Part shown: piece after piece, positions 33,653 through 44,731 of the stretch
How the letters are laid out: each line of letters starts with the position of its first letter
Numbering within the stretch: position 1 is the first letter of the stretch
Assembly (NCBI GenBank): GCA_030684475.1
Contig: JAUXWB010000094.1
Span: 1 to 46,790 of the forward strand
Source of the DNA: Reyranella sp.
GTDB lineage: Bacteria > Pseudomonadota > Alphaproteobacteria > Reyranellales > Reyranellaceae
Reading direction: 5' to 3'
DNA: 46,790 nucleotides
Notes under the pieces: generated by a model
Databases searched by the model: none
What the model saw: only the letters and a program-made list of their open reading frames with translations
Told to the model about the DNA's origin: nothing
Program-made: the position numbers and the translations under genes

Positions 33653-35515
33653 CTATGCCGCCCGGCGGCGAACGTATTTCAGCAGGGCAACCAAAGCAGC
33701 TGGAGTCACGCCCGAGATCCGCGCCGCTTGGCCCAGTGTTGCCGGCTTATGACCCTCTAGCTTCTGGCGGACTTCGTTGGAAAGACTACCGATGGCGCCG
33801 TAGTCCAAATCATCCGGCAGCTCTAACGCCTCGTCGCGCCGGTAAGCGCCGATATCCTGGCGTTGGCGGTCGAGATATCCGGCATACCGGGCATCGATGG
33901 TCAGTTGCTCGGCAACGTCGCCTGTTATGGTCGCCAGTTCCGGCCAAAGACTGACGATCCGTGGCCACCCGATTTCAGGATAGGCAAGGAGATCGAGGGC
34001 CGAGCGCAAAACCCCATCCTGATTGATAGCAACGCCGGCCTTGGACAAAGCCGACGGGCTGATCTTCAATTCCGCCGCCAATTCGCGGACCCTGGTAAGC
34101 GCCTGCTGTTTCACGTGAAACATCCGGCCTCGATCAGATCCGATACAGCCGATTTCTAGGCCGCGTGGAGTCAACCTTTGATCGGCATTGTCGGCCCGCA
34201 GCCAGAGGCGATATTCGGCCCTGGACGTGAACATCCGATAGGGTTCGGTCACGCCCAAAGAGACCAAATCGTCAATCAAAACACCGAGATAGCCGTCGGC
34301 GCGGTCGACAATGAAGGGCTTTGCCAGCACTGCATTCAAGCCGGCGATCAGGCCCTGGGCGGCAGCTTCCTCGTAGCCGGTGGTGCCGTTGATCTGGCCC
34401 GCCATATAGAGACCGGGAATGCGCCGGGTCTCCAGGGTGGCGTGCAGCTCGCGCGGGTCGATATGATCGTATTCGATGGCATACCCTGGCCGCAGCATGG
34501 CTGCGCGCTCCAACCCCGGGATGGTCTGCAAAAGGGCGACCTGCACATCGCGCGGCAGGGAGGTCGAGATCCCATTGGGATAGACGGTGTCATCGTCCAG
34601 CCCCTCCGGCTCGAGAAAGATCTGGTGCCGCTCGCGGCCAGCAAACCGCACGACCTTGTCCTCGATCGAGGGGCAGTAGCGCGGACCCACGCCCTCGATC
34701 TGGCCCGAGTACATCGGCGCGCGATGGAGGTTGGCGCGGATGATGGCGTGCGTTGCCGCCGTCGTCGTCGTGATGTGGCAGGCGATCTGCGGCGTGGTGA
34801 TGCGATCGGTGAGGTACGAAAACGGCACCGGCGGATCGTCGCCGTCCTGGCGCTCGAGCGAACTGTAATCGATCGTGCGGCCATCCAGTCGCGCCGGCGT
34901 GCCGGTCTTCAGCCGACCCAAGGCGAAGCCGAAGCGCTGCAACGTTTGCGCGAGCAGAGTAGAGGGTTCCTCAACCCCATCGCCGCGCGCACGTCCAGCA
35001 GGCGTCTTGATTTCACCCAGGTGAATCAGGCCTCGCAGGAACGTTCCCGTCGTCAGGATCACGCGCCCCGCGCCGATTTCGGCCCCGGCTTCCGTGGTCA
35101 CGCCGGCACACGTCCCGCTTGCATCGAGAAGAATATCTGCAACCGCATCGGCGCGGATGTCCAGCCCAGCCTGCTCCGCCAGCAGCGCCTGCACGGCGGC
35201 GCGATAGAGCTTGCGATCGGCCTGGGCGCGCGGGCCACGCACCGCCGGTCCCTTGGAGAGATTGAGGGTGCGGAACTGGATGCCGGCGCGGTCGATGGCG
35301 CGGCCCATGATGCCGTCGAGGGCATCGATCTCGCGCACCAGATGGCCCTTGCCCAGCCCGCCGATCGCGGGATTGCAGGACATTTCGCCGATCGTGTCGA
35401 GCCGATGCGTCAGCAGCAGCGTGCGGGCGCCCAGCCGCGCCGAGGCAGCCGCAGCTTCGCAGCCGGCATGGCCGCCGCCCACCACGATCACGTCATAGGG
35501 AAAGGCTCGCTGCAT
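33653..35515 (-). CDS. mnmG: tRNA uridine-5-carboxymethylaminomethyl modification enzyme MnmG
   Basis: MnmG (GidA), the FAD-dependent partner of MnmE in wobble-uridine modification. 620 residues, normal length. The dinucleotide-binding [21 protein letters not shown] is near 9-29; [23 protein letters not shown] near 46-68, [13 protein letters not shown] near 85-97 and [21 protein letters not shown] near 360-380 are highly conserved. A second parS encodes the MFHVK segment near residue 465. The ATG at 35515 gives [15 protein letters not shown]; the much longer upstream frame is antisense to the divergent gene. mnmE, often next to it, is absent here. Confidence 0.96.
34107..34122. promoter_or_regulatory. 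parS centromere site 2 (in mnmG)
   Basis: A second perfect copy of TGTTTCACGTGAAACA, 517 bp from the first, inside the mnmG coding sequence where it encodes Met-Phe-His-Val-Lys. Together the two sites mark the ParB loading zone of the chromosome and suggest the replication origin is not far away. Confidence 0.96.
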
Positions 35516-35602
35516 CGCGCGCCTTAAGTCGTGGAAGCGCAGCCTCAGGTCAAGAGCCACCCGGGTCGTTGACAGCCCAATGCCTGCCGTCGAGGGTGAC
35601 GC

Positions 35603-37234
35603 GTGCCTCCCTTCCAGGTCCCCCTGACCGTCGGCGTGACCGGCCATCGCCAGATCGCCGGGGACAGCACGGCCGCCATCGAAACCGCCGTTGCTTCCAT
35701 CTTCGAAGGCGTGCGCGCCAAGGCACCCCACGCACCGCTCGTCCTGCTGACCGGCCTGGCCGAAGGCGCCGACCGACTCGTTGCCCGCCTGGCCAGCGAG
35801 CGCTTCGGCGCCGAGCTCGTCGTCGTGCTGCCGCGCGCGGCCGAGAGCTACCACCGCGATTTCGCGACCGCCGAGAGCCGGGAAGAATTCGACCGCCTGC
35901 TCAAGTCGGCACGGCTCGTCGTCACCTGCCCCGAGGACCATCCCGATCCGACGGCCGGCTATCTGTGGGCCGGCAATTTTACGGCGCTTCATTCCCATCT
36001 GCTGATCGCCCTGTGGGACGGCGACGCGGCGCGCGGCGACGGCGGCACCGCCGAGATCGTCCAGGCCAAGCTCAAGGGACGCTACGCCGGCTGGGACGAG
36101 GGTGAGCCGCTGCGGTACGACGAAGGCGGCGCGGTCGCCCATGTGATCACGGCGCGCGCTGGCGAGACGCCGCCCGCCAATGTCGGCCAGACAAACTGGC
36201 TCTATCCCGATGCGGTTCTGATCGGCGCCCGGGGCGGCGAGCATCGCCATGCCGCGGTGCTGTCGGCCTTCAACATGCTCAATGGCCTGCTGACGCGCGA
36301 CGGACGCGCGCGCGACGCCTGGAGCGCCGATCCGGCGGCGCCGACCGTCGATGCGTTGAAGACCGCGACCGACCACTTTGCCAACCAATTCCAGCGCCGG
36401 ACCATCATCGCCGTGCGCCTCATGGTGCTTGCCACTTTTGTTGCGGCCCTCGCTTCGGCGCTTCAGAGCGCCCTCTCACCGATCGTCACTGCCGCCGCGC
36501 TGGCCACAGGCCTCGCCGTTTGGGTCACCTCGAGCCGAAGTCGCTGGCAGCGCCTGCACGCCGACCTCCGCGCGCTGGCCGAGGCCGGCCGCATCCAGGC
36601 GGCTTGGATCGCGAGCGGCCTCGCGCTCAGCGTCGCCGATCACTACCATCCCGCCCAGGCGACATCGGTCGCCTGGATCCGGCGCGCGATCCGCACGGCT
36701 TTCCTGCTCGACGACATCCAGCGACCGCGCACGGCACCGTCAGCGGAAGACCGCGAACGCCACGCCGCGGCCGGGCACGCCTGGATCGACGAACAGGTTG
36801 CGTACTTTCTCGGCAACCGCGGCGTCGTCCCGCGCTATCGCCGGCAAGCCCGACACTTCGCCATTCTGGGGCTTGTCTGTCTCGGCATCGGCCTCGTGAT
36901 CGTGGCCGGCAACAAGCTGCTCGATGTCGCCGCTATCGAGCAGACCGTGCTCGACACCGCGCTGCTGCTGCAGATCGGCCGCATTGCGCTGGCGATCACC
37001 GCCAGCGTCCAGGCCTATCAGGCCTTCATGTCGTTCGGCGATCTCCAGCGCTCGTTTGCCGTCTCAGCGCATCTCTTCAGCCTGGCGCGGGACGAGGCGC
37101 GCGCGGCAGCGGCGGCCGGTGATCAACCCCGGCTGATCCGCCTGATCGTCCAGCTCGGCCGCGCGGCGCTGGTCGAGAATGTCAGCTGGGTGATCCTGCG
37201 CCGCCAGCGCCGCATGAAGCCGCCGGCCGTCTGA
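35603..37234 (+). CDS. SLOG-SLATT-like membrane protein (predicted nucleotide sensor/effector)
   Basis: A 543-residue protein that I read as a SLOG-type Rossmannoid domain fused to a four-helix membrane domain. The N-terminal part (about 8-215) has VTGHR at 12-16, [17 protein letters not shown] at 48-64, [17 protein letters not shown] at 71-87 and ALWDGD at 136-141, the Gly-rich nucleotide or nucleotide-sugar pocket pattern of the SLOG/DprA/LOG superfamily. The C-terminal part has hydrophobic segments at about 268-285, 291-308, 418-437 and 450-470, like SLATT domains. Such fusions are predicted conflict-system effectors that form pores when the SLOG domain senses a nucleotide. The GTG start has GAGGG before it. 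It is divergent from mnmG. Function is inferred. Confidence 0.72.
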
Positions 37235-37344
37235 AGCATCTTGATCGGCGTTGGCCAATGAAGAATCATTCCGGCGCTCGCCCGCTTCAGGCTTCATCTG
37301 GAGAGTGCCGGCTTACAGAACGAGGCGAATGACCGGGGGAAGCC

Positions 37345-37902
37345 ATGCGATCGGCGTTTCTGCTCCTTTTGTTCGGGTCGGCACAAGCCTTGGCCGCCGA
37401 CCCGAACATCGTGTCGAAGTACGAGTCGTTTCACGGCTGCTGCGGGCCATTTCCGGCGTGGCTGACGCCGCATTCCGGTGTCGATTTTAGCGGCAAGTTC
37501 GGCGAGGACGTCATCGCACCCGCCGACGGCGAGGCGCAGGAGCATATCGGCGCCATTTATGCCAATTGTGGACGGACGATCGTGCTCTATCACCGCGCGT
37601 TCAATCGCTACACCGTGTATTGCCACTTTCAGGACGTGAAGGTGCGCCCCGGCGACACGGTGAAGCGTGGTGATGTCATCGGCACGCTGGGCGACACCGG
37701 CGTGGCCGCGGATTGCCGGCGCGGTACTGGCGCCTGCCCGATCGTGCACATGGAACTCAACACGGTGGGGCATGGCCATCCCCGAGCCAAGAAGGGCGTG
37801 ACGTTCGACGTCCTCGAATACACCGTCGGCTGCTTCGAGCCAGGAAAAACCTATCCGGCCGACCGCCTGGCGCTGACCTTTCCCGTACGCTGCAAGAACT
37901 AG
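37345..37902 (+). CDS. M23-family (LytM) peptidase, secreted
   Basis: A 185-residue secreted peptidase-like protein. A signal peptide (MRSAFLLLLFGSAQALA, cleavage after residue 17) precedes an M23 domain. Zinc ligands are visible in TPHSGVDFSG near 41-50 (His and Asp) and TVYCHFQDV near 90-98. VHMELN near 131-136 stands where the usual HxH lies, with Met-Glu after the His. GDTVKRGDVIGTLGDTG is the typical Gly-rich loop. Several Cys in the mature part suggest disulfides. It probably cleaves peptidoglycan cross-bridges, or is a catalytically weakened regulator. A GGGGGAAG ribosome binding site precedes the ATG. It is separated from the SLOG-SLATT gene by 110 nt. Confidence 0.85.
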   Translation: MRSAFLLLLFGSAQALAADPNIVSKYESFHGCCGPFPAWLTPHSGVDFSGKFGEDVIAPADGEAQEHIGAIYANCGRTIVLYHRAFNRYTVYCHFQDVKVRPGDTVKRGDVIGTLGDTGVAADCRRGTGACPIVHMELNTVGHGHPRAKKGVTFDVLEYTVGCFEPGKTYPADRLALTFPVRCKN

Positions 37903-37916
37903 ACGGCTCGCAGGAC

Positions 37917-37935
37917 CACACCCGAAGACGGTGTG
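37917..37935. terminator. Possible weak terminator between convergent genes
   Basis: A 6-bp stem (CACACC pairing with GGTGTG) with a 7-nt loop, followed by TATTT. It lies in the 42-nt gap between the convergent peptidase and patatin genes; stability is modest. Confidence 0.4.
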
Positions 37936-37944
37936 TATTTGTGC

Positions 37945-39108
37945 TCAGGCGATATCGAACACCACGGGGAAATGCTCGGCTTTCACGTGGCGATCGGCGA
38001 TCTGCCGGCCGATCTCGATCAGGGCCTCGATGCCGCGCGGATCGTCCATCTTCTGGATCCGCACGACCTGCTCGCGCGTCATGGTGATGCCGAGGCGCTC
38101 GATCAACCAGTCGATCTCGAGCTGGCCGTCGTAGCGCACGTAGTGCAGCAGCGGCTGGTGCGTCAGCCGGTCCTCCGCCAGATCCCCGATCTCGCTGTCG
38201 ATGATGCGCGGCGTCGGCGTGTCCGACGCCCATTGCAGCAGAAGCTGAACCAGCCGGCTGCCGTCGTCGATCATCGAGGTCAGCGCATTGACCGCCTGGA
38301 AGACCGAGGGCGTGTAGCGCAGGGCTTCGACACTGCGGCGCTGCCGGAAGAAGCCGGTGCCGACCGAGGCCAGCAGCAGGCGTTCATGGCCCAAGGGCCA
38401 GCCGATGTTGTAGCCCTTCAGGCTCGCCAGCATGAGAAGGTGCAACGACGGGTCGTTATGCGGGCTGACGCCGCCGTCGACGAAGGCGCCGAGTTCCTGG
38501 TCGGCCACCTTGATGAACTCGGGCCGGAAGAAGGTCGGCGCCGCCGTGCTGGCGAGGATTGCCGAGGAAAGCGGAATGTCGCCATTCGCCATGGCGCTGC
38601 CAGCGGTGTTGCCAGTGGTGTTGGGCGACGCGGCGAAGAAACGGCCGCGCGGATTGTTGTGCAGGATCCAGACGCTGCCGTTGTCGGCCCGCTTGGTGAC
38701 GATCGCCAGGCCGGTCCTGATCTTGTCCGATCCCAGCGTGATGTCGCCGATGATTTCCTTGAGCACGGCCGCCAGCGGCCCGCGCGAAAACCGCGGGCCA
38801 AAGATGCCGAAGCTCCAGGGCGGCCGTCGGAACACCCGAGTCGACAGGCTGCGATAGAGCTCGAGCAGTTCCTTCGCCGACAGGCCCAGCGCCAGGCCCG
38901 AGGCGATGATCGATCCGGTCGAGGTGCCGCCAATCAGGTCGAAGTAGTCGCAAAGCCGGAACGAGTCGGGCGTGGACGAACGCTCGCGGAGAAGGGTCTC
39001 CATCCGTTCGAGGATGGCGAGCGTCAGAATGCCGCGAACGCCACCGCCATCGAGCGCAAGAATGCGCTTGGGTCCCGGCGAAAATAGTCGCTGCTCGACC
39101 GCAGACAT
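37945..39108 (-). CDS. Patatin-like phospholipase
   Basis: A 387-residue patatin-fold lipid acyl hydrolase. All catalytic elements are present: the oxyanion-hole DGGGVRG at 20-26, the nucleophile Ser63 in GGTSTGS, and the Asp211 of the dyad in FVDGGVSPHND. SSAILASTAAPTFFRP near 181-196 is also typical. No signal peptide is seen, so it is probably cytosolic. The ATG at 39108 follows GGGGGGA; an in-frame TTG at 39120 would start inside that binding site. Patatins serve in lipid turnover, as secreted toxins and as CBASS effectors, but no CD-NTase is nearby. It is the last gene of a same-strand run starting at 44619. Confidence 0.92.
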   Translation of the reverse strand: MSAVEQRLFSPGPKRILALDGGGVRGILTLAILERMETLLRERSSTPDSFRLCDYFDLIGGTSTGSIIASGLALGLSAKELLELYRSLSTRVFRRPPWSFGIFGPRFSRGPLAAVLKEIIGDITLGSDKIRTGLAIVTKRADNGSVWILHNNPRGRFFAASPNTTGNTAGSAMANGDIPLSSAILASTAAPTFFRPEFIKVADQELGAFVDGGVSPHNDPSLHLLMLASLKGYNIGWPLGHERLLLASVGTGFFRQRRSVEALRYTPSVFQAVNALTSMIDDGSRLVQLLLQWASDTPTPRIIDSEIGDLAEDRLTHQPLLHYVRYDGQLEIDWLIERLGITMTREQVVRIQKMDDPRGIEALIEIGRQIADRHVKAEHFPVVFDIA

Positions 39109-39217
39109 CGTTCCCCCCAAGGTGCGGCTGCGGGAGGAAGGCTAGTCGGTCACCCAACTCGAAGCCAGAGAAGACAGCGACGTTGCCGGCCAAATGCGCC
39201 GCCGGTCGCGCTGGCCG

Positions 39218-40879
39218 CTATCGTGGCCTCGCGGGGTCGTCGCGGCCGATCCGATCGACGGCGCGCAGGGCCAACGCGTGGATCGTCAGCGCCGGCGCCT
39301 CGCCGCCACCCGTCGAGGGAAAGACGCTGGCATCGGTGATCCAGAGGTTGCGCCAGCGATGGCTGCGCAAGTCGCCCCGGACGACGGAGGTGGCGGGATC
39401 GGCGCCCATGCGGCAGGTGCCGAAGACCTGGGAGGCATGGAACTCGTCCCAGCTCGAATAGCTTTCGAAGATGTCACGCGCGCCGCAAGCGGCCAAGATC
39501 TCCCGCGACTTCGCCGCCATGAACCTGAGACGGGCAACGTCGTCGTCCGTCAGCCAGGGCGACAGACGGGCGAGCGGCACGCCAAAGCGGTCGCGTCTTT
39601 CGGGATCGAGTGCCACGTGGGCGCGATCGTTGGGCAGGTTCTCGCCGATCGCACCGACACTCAGCGCGTGGCCCCAAAGCTTCCGCATCGCCTGGGCGTG
39701 ATCGCGGCCCCAGCCCGGCACCGCGCGCAACGCGAAGTCCTGCAGGCTTGTAAATCCCCCCTCGGCCGAGGCGTTGTAGAAGCGGCACCCGCCCACGACA
39801 CCGGGAACGGCATCGGGCGCATTGAAGTCCCAGCAGACCGCATCGCTGGGCAGGCCCCGGCGGCCCTGCTGCGGTTCCGGATGCAGCGCGCCGACGAGGA
39901 CCCAGATCGATTCCATGAAGTTGCGCCCGACCTCTCCGCTTTCGTTGCCCAGTTGGCCCGACGCCAGGAGAAGGCGCGGCGATTCGACCGCGCCCGCCGC
40001 CAAGACCAGCAAGGGCGTCGAGATTCGCTCGAGGCTGCCGTCCTGTCGCCCGACCAGCACAGCGGCGATCCGGTCGTCCTTGCCCTTCTCGACGCGCACG
40101 ACTGGGGAGTCGGCACGCACGGTGCACCGGCCGGTCTCGAGGGCCGATGCGACGAACGTCACGTCGGCGCTTCCCTTGTCACCCCGGGGACAGCCCTTAT
40201 TGCAGGCGCCGCAATAGTTGCAGTCCGCCCGACCACCGTATGGCAATGACAGCGCGGCGCGACTGTTGGCCTGCCACGAAAGGCCAAGCGCCGCCGTCCC
40301 CCTGCCCAGTGTCTTGGCCGCGTAGGAGAGCGGATGCGGCGGCAGTGGGAAGGGGCGGGAGCGCCAGCGTGCGCTCTGCTGCAGCGGGCCGGCGACGCCG
40401 ACCAGCGCCTCGGCGCGTGCGTAGTAGGATTCCAGCTCGGCATAGTCGATGGGCCAGTCGGCGGCGACGCCGAAGCGCGTCTTCATCTTCATCGAGTCCG
40501 GATGGAGCCGATGCGATTCGCCGGTGAAGTGGAGCGTGCTGCCACCGATGCCGCGCACATGGTCGTAACCGCCCATGCTCCGCCGACCGTCGCTGGCGGC
40601 GCGGCCCCAGCCCTTGTTGAACGACGCGAGCAGCGGCTCGTCGCGCGCCAGCTCCTGGCCGGGTGCCAAGGCAACTTCCCCCTTGCTCCCGGGCTTCTCG
40701 GGAAAGCCTTCCCGCGCCCAGTTCGCTCCGGTCAAGGGATAGTCGACGAGGGGATCGAAGCGCGGCCCGGCGTCGAGCAGGAGCACCGACATTCCTCGCC
40801 GGCAAAGTCCCCAGGCCGCAGCGGCGCCGCCCGCGCCGGCGCCGACGACCACAGCATCCCAGCTTGGATCCGTCGTCAC
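39218..40879 (-). CDS. GMC-family oxidoreductase
   Basis: A 553-residue flavoprotein of the glucose-methanol-choline family. The FAD-binding AVVVGAGAGGAAAAWGL is near residues 9-25, the second ADP-type motif LVLAAGAVESPRLLLAS near 283-299, and the C-terminal FGTCRMGADPATSVV, then WITDASVFPSTGGGEAPALTIHALALR, are typical. A CNYCGACNKGCPRGDKGSAD segment near 218-237 is Cys-rich, as in gluconate dehydrogenase-like GMC subunits. The GTG start overlaps the stop of the upstream small-subunit gene (GTGA), so they form a pair. The substrate is probably a sugar acid or polyol; no cytochrome c subunit is present. Confidence 0.9.
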   Translation of the reverse strand: MTTDPSWDAVVVGAGAGGAAAAWGLCRRGMSVLLLDAGPRFDPLVDYPLTGANWAREGFPEKPGSKGEVALAPGQELARDEPLLASFNKGWGRAASDGRRSMGGYDHVRGIGGSTLHFTGESHRLHPDSMKMKTRFGVAADWPIDYAELESYYARAEALVGVAGPLQQSARWRSRPFPLPPHPLSYAAKTLGRGTAALGLSWQANSRAALSLPYGGRADCNYCGACNKGCPRGDKGSADVTFVASALETGRCTVRADSPVVRVEKGKDDRIAAVLVGRQDGSLERISTPLLVLAAGAVESPRLLLASGQLGNESGEVGRNFMESIWVLVGALHPEPQQGRRGLPSDAVCWDFNAPDAVPGVVGGCRFYNASAEGGFTSLQDFALRAVPGWGRDHAQAMRKLWGHALSVGAIGENLPNDRAHVALDPERRDRFGVPLARLSPWLTDDDVARLRFMAAKSREILAACGARDIFESYSSWDEFHASQVFGTCRMGADPATSVVRGDLRSHRWRNLWITDASVFPSTGGGEAPALTIHALALRAVDRIGRDDPARPR

Positions 40880-41394
40880 CGAGGCGGCGCCTCAAAATCG
40901 GGAAAGCCCTCAGGCTGTGGCGGTCCGGTGTAGGCGAAGCTGCGCTCGATCGCAGGCTCCGCATAGTAGACCGACAGCGCGCGATGTCTGAGGTCGATTA
41001 CGAACCGACGGCCAGCCGGCTCGACCGACTCGAAGGCCGCCATCATCAACCCCTCCTGTCGCCGCTCATCCAGGCCGAGGAAGCCTGCCGCGCCTTCAGC
41101 CTGTGCGCGATTGTCGAGCCATTCGATACCCGCCCTTACCGTTGCGCGAAGCTGGCCGACCTCGCGCTTCGGCGGGACGGCGGCCAGATCGTCGAGGCGC
41201 CGGTCGATTCCCAGTGCCACGCCGCCCGGGAGCTCGCCCGCCGGCAACAGGTGGTCGACGACGGTGCGCATCACGCGCGCAGCATGCTCAGGGTCGCCCG
41301 TACTGGAGACGCGACGCCATACATAGGCTGCCGCGCCACCAACGAACGGCAGCGCAAACAAGGCAATCGCGATGCGGCGGCGTGTGATGAACAT
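40876..41394 (-). CDS. Gluconate 2-dehydrogenase subunit 3-like protein
   Basis: A 172-residue small subunit of the gluconate 2-dehydrogenase gamma-chain family. The N-terminus has a short Arg triplet and a hydrophobic segment (MFITRRRIAIALFALPFVGG), which may be a Tat-like signal or an anchor; the canonical twin-arginine context is incomplete. The body contains VVDHLLPAGELPGGVALGID near 45-64 and a conserved HRALSVYYAEP region near 136-146. Its role is to help export and anchor the GMC catalytic subunit encoded next, which overlaps by 4 nt. Together they form a two-subunit dehydrogenase. Confidence 0.85.
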   Translation of the reverse strand: MFITRRRIAIALFALPFVGGAAAYVWRRVSSTGDPEHAARVMRTVVDHLLPAGELPGGVALGIDRRLDDLAAVPPKREVGQLRATVRAGIEWLDNRAQAEGAAGFLGLDERRQEGLMMAAFESVEPAGRRFVIDLRHRALSVYYAEPAIERSFAYTGPPQPEGFPDFEAPPR

Positions 41395-41466
41395 CTACAG
41401 GCACCGTCGCTGCGGCTCTGCGGCCGCACCCAGTGATCGCAGCCGTCTTTGCAGACGATGAAGCTG

Positions 41467-41586
41467 CTACTTCGGCGGAGGTGCTGACTTGGGCGGCGGG
41501 CCCGTACCGGCTTGCGCCGACCACACCATCGTCACGGCAGGCATCACAAACGCAAACAACGCCAGAACAAGGATAAATGGCCTCAT
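41467..41586 (-). CDS. 39-residue secreted or membrane peptide
   Basis: A small gene below common length cut-offs. The peptide is a hydrophobic N-terminal segment (MRPFILVLALFAFVMPAVTM) ending in a WSAQA signal-peptidase-like site, then a short Pro/Lys-rich tail (GPPPKSAPPPK). A strong GGGAGGA ribosome binding site lies before the ATG, the best evidence that it is translated. It sits between the STAND-FGE gene and the dehydrogenase small-subunit gene on the same strand. It could be a tiny secreted peptide, a membrane-anchored microprotein or a relic; I do not recognise a family. Confidence 0.5.
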   Translation of the reverse strand: MRPFILVLALFAFVMPAVTMVWSAQAGTGPPPKSAPPPK

Positions 41587-41697
41587 TGCGATCGTCCTCC
41601 CGGGCCAGTGTCTGACGGCCCGACACAATCAGGGTGAGTTATGCGCCCCCGCTGGTCAAGAGCCCGGGGCAAAGTCCCGCCCGCCACGGATCGGCTT

Positions 41698-44619
41698 TCA
41701 CCGCTCGACGACCAGGACCACACGCAACCCGACATTGGCGTAGCCGCGGTCTTCTGGAAATCTTGCCCGGACGGCGGCGCGGAGATTTTCAGGCGGGCTG
41801 AAAAAGGAGCCGCCGCGGCTGACTCGAAGTTTGCACTCGGCGGCGCCGGTTGTTCCGGAGGCATTGGTGCCGCCTTCGCAGCTTTCCACCCACTCGCCGA
41901 CATTCCCCAAGATGTCGTGCAGGCCGAACGCATTCGGCTGGAACGATCCGACCGGTGCGGTGAAGGCAAAACCGTCGTCGCAGGGAGATATCTCGCCGAA
42001 GGTGTTGCCGTATTCGCGCCTGAGGCTTGTATCGCCGGTATTGGTGTACCGGCAGGCCTCTTCGATCTGGTCGCCCCAGAAACGCGACGTCTTGGTACCG
42101 GCGCGCGCCGCATATTCCCACTCGGCTTCCGTCGGCATGCGATAGTGATGCGTGCCGAAGAACGACATGCGCGAGATGAAGCTTCGCGCGTCCTTCCAAC
42201 TTATGGTTTCGACGGGCAGCCGCCCGCGCTTGTCGTCCGGCAGGCCTTCGCCCTTATAACGGGACGGGCTGGACGCCTCGGGGATGATCTTTGCCCACTC
42301 CGCCTGCGTGACTTCGAACTTCCCGAGGCGAAACGGGTCGACGCAGACCTCGCGCGGCAGGTGATCGGTTTCGAGACGCCCCTTCTCCTCGGCAGGACTG
42401 CCCATCGTGAAGCAGCCGCCGGGGACATCGACGAATGCCATGCTCGCCTCGACTTCGCGCACGCCCATCCAGACGAAGCTCGCCCAGACCAGACCGGCAA
42501 CCAGCGGCACGGCGGCCATGGCGCCGACCAGGCCGAGCGACAACCAAAGGCGCGCCTTCAGAACGGCCCGCCGCGACTCCCTGATGAAGTTTCTGATCTG
42601 CGCCGGCAACTCGTCGCCCCACCGGCGCACCAACGCCTGGGCCTCGATCAATGGCAGGCCGGCCGCGAGCAGCAGGCTGCGGCGATCCTTGGGCTTGGCG
42701 GTCCGAAACCGCTCGGCGGCAAGCTCCAGCCGGTCGCGCAGTTCGAGGTCCCGGGCGTCGGCTTCGATCTGGATGCGCGCTCGCTCCCAGTGGTTCAACA
42801 AGGCCTCGTGAGCCACGCGCACCTGGTTATGATCCACCACCACCAGACGCGCACGTGGCCCCGCGAAGGCCTCGATGAGGCGCTCTTCGGAGCTGCCGGT
42901 GGGAAATTCGCTCCGCAACGCCGCCCGCGCGGTCGCTCGCCCCGCGTTCAACCCGGTGACAAGTGACCGAAGAACGCGCCTGAACGCGGCCTGAACCTCC
43001 GGCGCCTGGGCGGCGAGAACCTCCTCGGCGCGCCGCCCGATCGCCCCCTCCAGCCCGCGGAGATCCTCATAGGCGGCATAGGTGAGCTGTCCCGTCGGGC
43101 TGCGTCGATGCCACAGCTGGTCCAGCAGATACTCGAGCAACGGCAGCGCGGCGGGATCGCGCGAGGCGGCTTTGTGGATCTCGTCGTCGAGGCCTCGCCC
43201 CGTCTGCGGGTCGACTTCGAATGCCAGCCCCGCCTCCTTTGCGGGTTGTCGAATGATCTCGCCGATCTCGGGCCCCTCCGGCGGCAACAGGACATAGGTG
43301 CTGTCGCTTGCCAGGCGAGCCAGCGTGGACACGCTGCCCAACCGATCGAAGAAATCCGATCGCATGGTGGCGATCACCCAGACGAGATTGCTCGACGCCA
43401 GCGTCTCCAGAACCGCGGCATAGCGGTCGCGCATCTCCGGCGAGATGGCGTCGGATGTGAACAGCTCCTCCAGTTGATCGACGATCAGAAGCAGCCGAGC
43501 CTCGCCGCGCTCGGTCACTCCGGCCGCCGCGGACGCCGCCGCGAGTCCCTGGCGGATGGGTTGCGACGCTTCGGTGGCGGACAGGGCCAGCAGCCGGCCG
43601 AGGCCTTCGGCCATGTAGGAGAGCGGCGCCTGCGCCAATTCCGGCAACGCACGCGCCGACAGGATCGCCGACGCCAGACCGGTCAGGGCATCAACATCGG
43701 ACGTGCCGACGAAGGCGGCGGGACGCGTGACCGCCCAGCGGACGAGCGCGACGTTTCCCACCATGCCGGCTTCGCTGAGTTCGGGCAGCAGCCCCGCCTT
43801 GGCCAGGCTCGACTTTCCCGATCCGCTCGCCCCGGTCAGGAGAACGAACGCCGTTCCCTGCTCCACGCGCTTGCGCAGCAGCTCGCGGACCTCGTTGCGG
43901 GCCTGGGTGCGGCCGAAGAAGACCTGCTCATGCTCGCGCTCGAAGGATTCGAGCCCGCGATAGGGTGATCCCTCGTGCCACCGGATCGTCGGCGCGGCGG
44001 CGTCGCTGGCGCCGGGAAGCCGTTTGCGCAGAAGCGACGCCAAGTGTTCATAGACCTGCTGCTGGAACTCCGCAGTGTCGGCGAAGGTCCACGACGCCGC
44101 GGTAAACGCCTTGCCGGCTGCATCCCTCGTCCAGCGCCGCATGAACTCTTCGACAAGCTCGGTCTGGCGTTGCCGTTCCTCGACGGCCGCCCGGTCACCG
44201 AACTCGCCTTTGGCCGGCTCGGTCTTTCGATACAGCAGAAGATCCGGCAGACGGCGCTCGCGGGCACTCGCCAGTGCATCCTCGAACTCCCACTCGGTGC
44301 CGGTGACGGCTTTGCCCGATATCGGGCCGGGGAATTTCTTCTCGTCGAGAAAAACGCCAAGTCGCGACCACAGGATGACCATGACGATGTCGGTGTCGCG
44401 CGGCGGGACGATGAGCTCTTGAAACGACTGCGAGGCGACGAGCGGCTCGCGCTCCCACAGATAGGGCTCGATGCGGAAGTGATAGGCGAACTCGCGATCG
44501 AGACGTCGAATGACGCGCTCGGCGATGATGCGCTCGGGCCGCACATCCATCGGCGAAGAAATGAAGACCCGAATCAGTTGCCGTTCCTGCACCCGCGTCC
44601 CTGCCCCTGCTCCGGCCAT
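41698..44619 (-). CDS. DUF4062-STAND NTPase-FGE-sulfatase multidomain protein
   Basis: A 973-residue signalling-type protein with four parts in order. Residues about 15-110 form a DUF4062-like domain (IRVFISSPMDVRPERIIAE, with ILWSRLG). About 215-620 is an nSTAND1-type NTPase: FFGRTQARNEVRELL, Walker A GASGSGKSS at 263-271, Walker B LLLIVDQLEEL near 376-386, DPAALPLLEYLLDQLW near 488-503 and VRVAHEALLNHWERA near 600-614. A membrane helix spans about 693-717. The C-terminus (about 725-970) is a formylglycine-generating-enzyme-like (FGE-sulfatase) domain with FTMGSPAEEKGR, FEVTQAEWAK, RMPTEAEWEYAARAG, LGNVGEWVESC and RVSRGGSF. STAND-FGE combinations belong to predicted NTP-dependent conflict and signalling systems. 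The ATG at 44619 has only a weak binding site. Confidence 0.88.
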   Translation of the reverse strand: MAGAGAGTRVQERQLIRVFISSPMDVRPERIIAERVIRRLDREFAYHFRIEPYLWEREPLVASQSFQELIVPPRDTDIVMVILWSRLGVFLDEKKFPGPISGKAVTGTEWEFEDALASARERRLPDLLLYRKTEPAKGEFGDRAAVEERQRQTELVEEFMRRWTRDAAGKAFTAASWTFADTAEFQQQVYEHLASLLRKRLPGASDAAAPTIRWHEGSPYRGLESFEREHEQVFFGRTQARNEVRELLRKRVEQGTAFVLLTGASGSGKSSLAKAGLLPELSEAGMVGNVALVRWAVTRPAAFVGTSDVDALTGLASAILSARALPELAQAPLSYMAEGLGRLLALSATEASQPIRQGLAAASAAAGVTERGEARLLLIVDQLEELFTSDAISPEMRDRYAAVLETLASSNLVWVIATMRSDFFDRLGSVSTLARLASDSTYVLLPPEGPEIGEIIRQPAKEAGLAFEVDPQTGRGLDDEIHKAASRDPAALPLLEYLLDQLWHRRSPTGQLTYAAYEDLRGLEGAIGRRAEEVLAAQAPEVQAAFRRVLRSLVTGLNAGRATARAALRSEFPTGSSEERLIEAFAGPRARLVVVDHNQVRVAHEALLNHWERARIQIEADARDLELRDRLELAAERFRTAKPKDRRSLLLAAGLPLIEAQALVRRWGDELPAQIRNFIRESRRAVLKARLWLSLGLVGAMAAVPLVAGLVWASFVWMGVREVEASMAFVDVPGGCFTMGSPAEEKGRLETDHLPREVCVDPFRLGKFEVTQAEWAKIIPEASSPSRYKGEGLPDDKRGRLPVETISWKDARSFISRMSFFGTHHYRMPTEAEWEYAARAGTKTSRFWGDQIEEACRYTNTGDTSLRREYGNTFGEISPCDDGFAFTAPVGSFQPNAFGLHDILGNVGEWVESCEGGTNASGTTGAAECKLRVSRGGSFFSPPENLRAAVRARFPEDRGYANVGLRVVLVVER

Positions 44620-44731
44620 CACGTGACCACACTAGCCCCCTCCGGGCAACGCGCGGCGATGATTCAGTTCGTGTGCAAAGCGCCGATCCGAGAGAACCGG
44701 TCGAACCTAAAGAGCCGACCCGGCGGGATTC

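What the first reader, a model, noticed from the sequence alone, without database searches (positions are those of the whole stretch)
41698..44619. DUF4062-STAND NTPase with a membrane helix and an FGE-like domain
The architecture joins an N-terminal DUF4062 domain, an intact nSTAND1 ATPase with Walker A and B, a membrane helix and a formylglycine-generating-enzyme-like domain. STAND proteins act as switchable sensors in bacterial immunity; the FGE part could be sensor or effector. The helix would place the FGE-like domain across the membrane from the ATPase, which is unusual for an antiphage STAND protein and may indicate sensing outside the cytoplasm.
Basis: partly seen in the sequence, partly recalled or inferred. 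Interest (0 to 1): 0.7.

Follow-up and report, generated by a model that had tools for sequence, protein, structure and literature searches.

The report
Membrane-spanning TIR-like immune receptor cassette
A bacterium carries an insertable gene cassette whose main protein appears to sense something outside the inner membrane with a lectin-like domain and to switch on a TIR-like NAD-cleaving domain inside the cell, next to a probable ligand-gated membrane protein and a lipase; if true, it is a bacterial counterpart of transmembrane innate-immune receptors.

Summary
Window 44619-41698 (-) encodes a DUF4062 domain (TIR/nucleoside-hydrolase fold, conserved GTxxE glutamate), an intact nSTAND1 ATPase, one membrane helix and an FGE-like domain lacking both catalytic cysteines; the genome's true FGEs keep them and lie beside sulfatases elsewhere. 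The reading is partly right. The helix is the family rule: 60 of 78 relatives have it, 59 of those with positive charges on the STAND side. FGE is one of several swappable outer domains (TPR, WD40, FGE). Six cysteines lie outside, none inside. Between mnmG and a histidine-phosphatase gene, adjacent in relatives without it, sits a cassette: a SLOG protein with membrane segments, M23 peptidase, patatin, a GMC dehydrogenase pair and the receptor. SLOG-TM accompanies DUF4062-nSTAND1 in 8 of 8 genomes of the genus (6 of 57 others) and lies near it in 20 of 80 loci; elsewhere it lies beside TIR-TPR, TIR-TM-FGE or patatin genes. Best reading: a transmembrane TIR-like receptor, a new variant of known STAND/TIR conflict systems. 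Trigger, NADase activity and signalling to SLOG are untested.

The parts
41698..44619 (-). Receptor gene: DUF4062 - nSTAND1 - membrane helix - FGE-like domain, 973 aa (ATG; a GTG codon precedes it at 44622)
44212..44583 (-). DUF4062 (TIR/NDT-fold) N-terminal domain, probable NADase effector
   Evidence: PADLOC PDC-S60 stretch 14-137, E 1.3e-6; relatives hit PF13271; model matches TIR and DNPH1 at Z 10-12
44287..44289 (-). Codon of E111 in GTEWEFEDA, probable catalytic glutamate
   Evidence: E in 67 of 68 aligned DUF4062 domains, G107 in 68, T108 in 64
42694..43965 (-). nSTAND1 ATPase switch
   Evidence: PF20703 E 6.1e-86; mostly pLDDT over 90
43807..43833 (-). Walker A, GASGSGKSS
   Evidence: sequence; invariant or nearly so in relatives
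43477..43494 (-). Walker B, LLLIVD
   Evidence: sequence
42487..42543 (-). Membrane helix, 5 K/R before and 1 after: N-terminus inside, C-terminus outside
   Evidence: helix 673-725 in the model
41716..42435 (-). FGE-like (lectin-fold) domain, probable extracytoplasmic sensor; six cysteines, catalytic Cys pair absent
   Evidence: PF03781 E 6e-45; Cys 737, 760, 857, 881, 915, 930; alignment
35603..37234 (+). SLOG + SLATT-like multi-TM protein, 543 aa: probable nucleotide-ligand sensor and membrane effector
   Evidence: weak YAcAr and SLATT_3 hits; weak hits in relatives; three TM segments by hydropathy here, 3-4 in most relatives; linkage
37945..39120 (-). Patatin-like phospholipase with GxSxG and DGG motifs (by eye); probable second effector
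   Evidence: PF01734 E 1.8e-28; PADLOC phospholipase effectors E 3e-42; syntenic in relatives
37345..37902 (+). M23 peptidase with apparent signal peptide, inside the inserted cassette; role unclear
   Evidence: PF01551 E 3e-17; cassette limits
39218..40879 (-). GMC oxidoreductase, inside the cassette; where most relatives have a membrane protein
40876..41394 (-). Gluconate-2-dehydrogenase subunit-3-like partner of the GMC gene; no close homologue in 60 other genomes of the genus
35513..44731 (.). Inserted cassette between mnmG and the histidine-phosphatase gene; the flanking genes are adjacent in relatives without it

Best explanation
The gene encodes a single-pass inner-membrane immune receptor. 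The FGE-like lectin-fold domain lies outside the cytoplasm and binds a trigger. The nSTAND1 ATPase in the cytoplasm is the switch and oligomerises on activation. The DUF4062 domain at the N-terminus is the TIR-like executor that cleaves NAD+. It acts with its cassette partners: the SLOG/SLATT-like multi-TM protein reads an ADP-ribose-type product and permeabilises the membrane, and the patatin damages phospholipids, so the cell dies or stops growing. Shown here by computation: domain order, TIR/NDT fold with the conserved glutamate, helix with N-in/C-out charges, loss of the FGE active site, cassette linkage and insertion. Inferred: oligomerisation, NAD+ cleavage, an extracytoplasmic ligand, and signalling to SLOG and patatin.
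For: N-terminal model matches TIR NADases and DNPH1 at Z 10-12; glutamate of GTxxE in 67 of 68; DUF4062 reported as portal-activated NADase in Swarozyc and as NADase in TEP1 (PMC13174449). Helix after nSTAND1 in 60 of 78 relatives, more K/R on the N side in 59 of 60 (sign test). Cysteines 0 of 693 residues inside, 6 of 262 outside, Fisher p 4e-4; the same six in the nearest relative L030. C-terminal domains swap: TPR in about 21 and WD40 in 13 of 57, FGE in 7 of the 80 loci; at least 5 FGE/non-FGE changes on the tree. SLOG-TM in 8 of 8 genomes of the genus with DUF4062-nSTAND1 against 6 of 57 without, p 6e-7; SLOG-TM within the flanks of 20 of 80 loci although only 9 of 397 other phylum genomes hold one anywhere. 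G063 has a TIR gene plus an nSTAND1 gene in place of the fusion, with the same patatin and SLOG families. SLOG-TM genes picked without regard to receptors lie beside TIR-TPR, TIR-TM-FGE and patatin genes. SLATT is predicted elsewhere as an ADPR-derivative-regulated pore and SLOG as a cADPR sensor (PMC9503650).
Against: No experiment. 60 of 80 loci show no SLOG-TM gene in the flank held (some flanks are short), so the receptor may often act alone. SLOG and SLATT assignments rest on weak Pfam scores. The receptor is on the opposite strand from the SLOG gene, with other genes between. Three of the four human DUF4062 proteins tested in PMC13174449 had no activity, so a conserved fold does not prove catalysis. 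The TIR of L172 is weak (E 5e-4). The FGE part of the full model is poorly predicted, so the disulfides are not modelled.
Confidence: 0.5

Rival explanations
1. Swarozyc-like executor acting alone: the receptor depletes NAD+ directly and the neighbours are independent defence genes that gather at the same insertion site.
For: Characterised DUF4062 defence is single-gene NAD+ depletion (PMC13174449); 60 of 80 loci have no SLOG-TM gene in the flank held; the same site holds other cargo in G075.
Against: Co-occurrence and linkage with SLOG-TM across phyla far above background; SLOG-TM also lies beside TIR proteins without DUF4062.
Confidence: 0.25
2. Envelope-stress or environmental sensor: the outer domain monitors the cell envelope or a solute and the cassette serves stress control rather than immunity.
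For: Outer location; the cassette holds an M23 peptidase and a GMC dehydrogenase; no characterised defence system was recognised among the window genes scanned.
Against: Parts are conflict-system parts (TIR-like, STAND, SLOG/SLATT-like, patatin); patchy presence (8 of 65 genomes) at an insertion site; sensor swapping.
Confidence: 0.15
3. Formylglycine-generating enzyme for sulfatase maturation.
For: PF03781 match E 6e-45.
Against: Both catalytic cysteines absent here and in L030, L031, L050; the genome's own FGEs with the Cys motif lie beside sulfatases on contigs C336 and C82; no sulfatase on contig C32.
Confidence: 0.02
4. DGR-diversified antigen receptor, as in Thiohalocapsa, with the FGE domain mutated by a retroelement.
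For: STAND-FGE proteins are DGR targets elsewhere (PMC10907252, PMC8195603).
Against: No reverse transcriptase in the 85%-complete assembly, no template-like repeat of the FGE region, none in the genome of the nearest relative L030.
Confidence: 0.03

Closest known systems
Swarozyc (DUF4062 NADase defence, PMC13174449, 2026 preprint)
   Same: DUF4062 TIR-like N-terminal domain with the conserved glutamate, fused to a C-terminal sensor part
   Different: Swarozyc has a small winged-helix portal-binding domain and senses a phage portal; here an nSTAND1 ATPase, a membrane helix and an FGE domain, plus SLOG-TM and patatin partners; NADase activity untested here
STAND NTPase-FGS conflict systems (PMC7159879, PMC8195603) and DGR targets (PMC10907252)
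   Same: nSTAND1 joined to an FGE/lectin-fold sensor; a few such targets predicted to face the periplasm
   Different: DUF4062 is not mentioned in those texts; no DGR found here; helix and orientation conserved across the family; the cassette partners were not found described there
Thoeris (TIR signal producer plus SLOG-containing ThsA)
   Same: TIR-fold NAD+ enzyme next to a SLOG-bearing partner
   Different: The producer here would be a DUF4062-STAND membrane receptor; the partner is SLOG with membrane segments, not SIR2-SLOG
TEP1/NWD1-type animal proteins (DUF4062-NACHT-WD40, PMC13174449)
   Same: DUF4062 joined to a STAND-class ATPase and, in some bacterial relatives, WD40 repeats
   Different: I know of no membrane helix between ATPase and sensor in those; FGE sensor here
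Avs antiphage STAND proteins
   Same: N-terminal effector, central STAND ATPase, C-terminal sensor (own knowledge)
   Different: Avs sense phage proteins in the cytoplasm with TPR-type sensors and other effectors; here membrane-spanning

Membership tests
DUF4062 (PF13271) | Sequence match to the family | tested here: met
   Not for the window protein alone, but 55 of 68 members of its N-terminal alignment match
DUF4062 (PF13271) | TIR/NDT fold with catalytic-type glutamate | tested here: met
   Z 10-12 to TIR and DNPH1; E111 in 67 of 68
Swarozyc | NAD+ hydrolysis on phage trigger, glutamate-dependent | not testable with these tools
   needs biochemistry
Swarozyc | Small winged-helix portal-binding auxiliary domain directly after DUF4062 | tested here: not met
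   what follows is nSTAND1, helix and FGE
nSTAND1 NTPases | PF20703 match with intact Walker A and B | tested here: met
   E 6.1e-86; motifs
Active formylglycine-generating enzymes | Copper-binding catalytic cysteine pair | tested here: not met
   GGSFFSPPEN against GGSFLCHESWC in the same genome
Active formylglycine-generating enzymes | Sulfatase in the neighbourhood | tested here: not met
   seven sulfatase matches, all on other contigs, none on C32
DGR targets | Reverse transcriptase and template repeat | tested here: not met
   in an 85%-complete assembly
Thoeris | TIR-fold protein linked to a SLOG-domain partner | tested here: inconclusive
   linkage found, but SLOG identification rests on weak scores and signalling is untested
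CBASS | CD-NTase beside the phospholipase | tested here: inconclusive
   patatin resembles CBASS phospholipases below the NCBIfam cut-off; no CD-NTase among the cassette genes scanned; the whole genome was not searched for one

The most novel reading that the evidence does not exclude
A bacterial analogue of transmembrane Toll-like receptors: an exchangeable extracytoplasmic sensor (FGE, TPR or WD40), a STAND switch and a cytoplasmic TIR-like NADase in one chain, signalling through an ADP-ribose product to a SLOG-gated membrane protein and a patatin, carried as an insertable cassette whose receptor is replaced while the effectors stay.
Probability: 0.25. Interest if true: 0.85.

Novelty: new variant of a known kind. 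Interest (0 to 1): 0.62.

Why it matters
Most characterised bacterial STAND sensors watch the cytoplasm. A conserved family that places the sensor outside and a TIR-like NADase inside would let bacteria answer attack at the envelope, and would give a bacterial parallel to animal transmembrane TIR receptors. The repeated pairing with a SLOG/SLATT-like membrane protein makes the suspected link from NAD+ product to membrane effector directly testable in a compact cassette, and the fixed insertion site with swapped receptors is a natural experiment in sensor exchange.

Tried and rejected
Sulfatase maturation: rejected on missing cysteines and neighbourhood. DGR: no reverse transcriptase or template repeat found. 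A direct Pfam DUF4062 hit to the window protein: none, solved through relatives. A sequence profile of the DUF4062 domain against PDB found nothing. Plain Foldseek ranking was uninformative (best hit TRAPPC11 at TM-score 0.34); VIA-align gave TIR/NDT. Disulfides by structure prediction: the FGE part of the full-length model has low pLDDT, so I relied on conserved cysteines and on the last Cys pair, which aligns with one in PvdO. Viral contigs: no relative found. The GMC and G2dh3 genes as core partners: rejected, G2dh3 has no close homologue in the other genomes of the genus searched and most relatives have another membrane protein there. Literature holding DUF4062 and SLOG together: none in the held library, which lacks many subscription papers.

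Full report
What is there. The minus-strand ORF 44619-41698 encodes 973 residues in four parts: a DUF4062 domain, an nSTAND1 ATPase, one hydrophobic helix and an FGE-sulfatase-family domain. The window is one whole contig (C32) of an 85%-complete assembly.

N-terminus. The window protein alone does not hit PF13271, but 55 of 68 aligned sequences do. A structure predicted from that alignment has mean pLDDT 91.6 and aligns best with DNPH1-type nucleotide hydrolases and with TIR domains, among them AbTir, RPP1, SPARTA and SARM1, at Z 10-12. The motif GTxxE carries a glutamate in 67 of 68 sequences. A 2026 preprint reports that DUF4062 is a family of TIR-like NADases, active in an antiphage system (Swarozyc) and in human TEP1, and dependent on a glutamate (PMC13174449). 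I therefore take the N-terminus as the executor. That E111 is the counterpart of E97 of KpSwz is inference from the motif.

The FGE domain is not an FGE. Active FGEs need a cysteine pair. The window reads RGGSFFSPPENLR, while L002 in the same genome reads RGGSFLCHESWC. The two stand-alone FGE-type genes fetched from this genome lie on contigs C336 and C82, each near a sulfatase; contig C32 has none. The three nearest full-length relatives also lack the pair. STAND-FGE fusions have been read as invader sensors with a lectin fold (PMC8195603).

Topology. A helix directly after nSTAND1 is found in 60 of 78 relatives long enough to score, and 59 of those 60 have more lysine and arginine before the helix than after it. 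This predicts the ATPase inside and the C-terminal domain outside. In the window protein no cysteine occurs in the 693 residues before the helix and six occur in the 262 after it (p 4e-4). All six are conserved in L030, which would suit disulfides in the periplasm. Hydropathy and charge counts are simple measures, and the disulfides were not modelled. The C-terminal domain varies: about 21 TPR and 13 WD40 of 57 scanned, and FGE in seven of the 80 loci. On a tree of 39 DUF4062-nSTAND1 sequences, FGE versus non-FGE changes at least five times.

The cassette. In the flanks of 80 DUF4062-nSTAND1 loci the most frequent neighbour family is the one encoded at window 35603-37234: a SLOG-like N-terminus followed by membrane segments. 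A profile finds it in 20 of 80 loci, sometimes overlapping or within 20 bases of the receptor gene. Only 9 of 397 other genomes across the phylum have one anywhere. In 65 genomes of the genus it is present in all 8 that carry DUF4062-nSTAND1 and in 6 of the other 57 (p 6e-7). Counts within the genus are not independent of descent, but the linkage across phyla points the same way. Pfam support for SLOG and SLATT is weak in any one protein, so these names are provisional.

In the genus the order is mnmG, SLOG-TM, patatin, other genes, receptor, histidine phosphatase, ompA. In relatives without the cassette mnmG lies directly beside the histidine phosphatase gene, for instance in G064, G018, G079 and G067, and in G075 the same place holds other genes. 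The cassette is thus an insertion of about 9 kb at a used site. The window's SLOG protein is 83-85% identical and its patatin 87-91% identical to versions in its relatives, but its receptor is not their orthologue: it groups with L030 of another family, and four of the syntenic receptors form a different clade. This suggests the receptor was exchanged while the partners stayed. In G063 the patatin and SLOG genes accompany a TIR-domain gene and an nSTAND1 gene in place of the DUF4062 fusion.

Reciprocal check. SLOG-TM genes found without regard to receptors lie beside a TIR-TPR gene (L166), beside a TIR-TM-FGE gene with inside-positive charges (L172) and beside patatin genes (L169, L170, L171). 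The TIR match in L172 is weak.

Mechanism. I consider most likely a membrane-spanning receptor that senses outside through FGE, switches through nSTAND1 and cleaves NAD+ through DUF4062, with the SLOG-TM protein and patatin as membrane effectors. SLOG as a sensor of cyclic ADP-ribose variants and SLATT as an ADPR-regulated pore are predictions or findings for other systems (PMC9503650). Activity, trigger and signalling here are inference.

Known or new. DUF4062 as NADase, STAND-FGE fusions, and occasional periplasmic lectin-fold domains on STAND proteins are all published. What I did not find in the held literature is the family-wide outward orientation of the sensor in DUF4062-STAND proteins and their linkage with SLOG-TM and patatin. 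That library lacks many subscription papers. I rate it a new variant of a known kind.

Noticed in passing
L031 and L050: One Magnetococcales assembly carries two divergent copies of the FGE-type receptor, 49% and 47% identical to the window protein.
   Followed up: partly
L052:9459-11084, L157:7624-9279, L030:10854-12296: A membrane protein family without a Pfam match lies directly beside the receptor gene in several relatives, including L030 of another family.
   Followed up: partly
L169:6343-8763 and L170:5545-7917: A RyR-domain protein with a possible membrane helix lies beside patatin and SLOG-TM genes.
   Followed up: no
L163:5961-9325: A SLOG-TM gene lies between two genes with TPR-S/MAP3K_TRAF_bd domains, another possible partner type.
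   Followed up: no
L186 (G075): The mnmG - histidine phosphatase junction holds unrelated cargo here, so it looks like an insertion hot spot.
   Followed up: partly
L016 (G036): A relative with an N-terminal TIR-like domain (by eye), nSTAND1 and WD40 repeats, in the same order of parts.
   Followed up: no
window 37345-37902: M23 peptidase with an apparent signal peptide inside the cassette; its role is unexplained and it was not found in the other cassettes checked.
   Followed up: partly
L073: A Nitrospirales locus carries two SLOG-TM genes and a patatin around one receptor gene.
   Followed up: no
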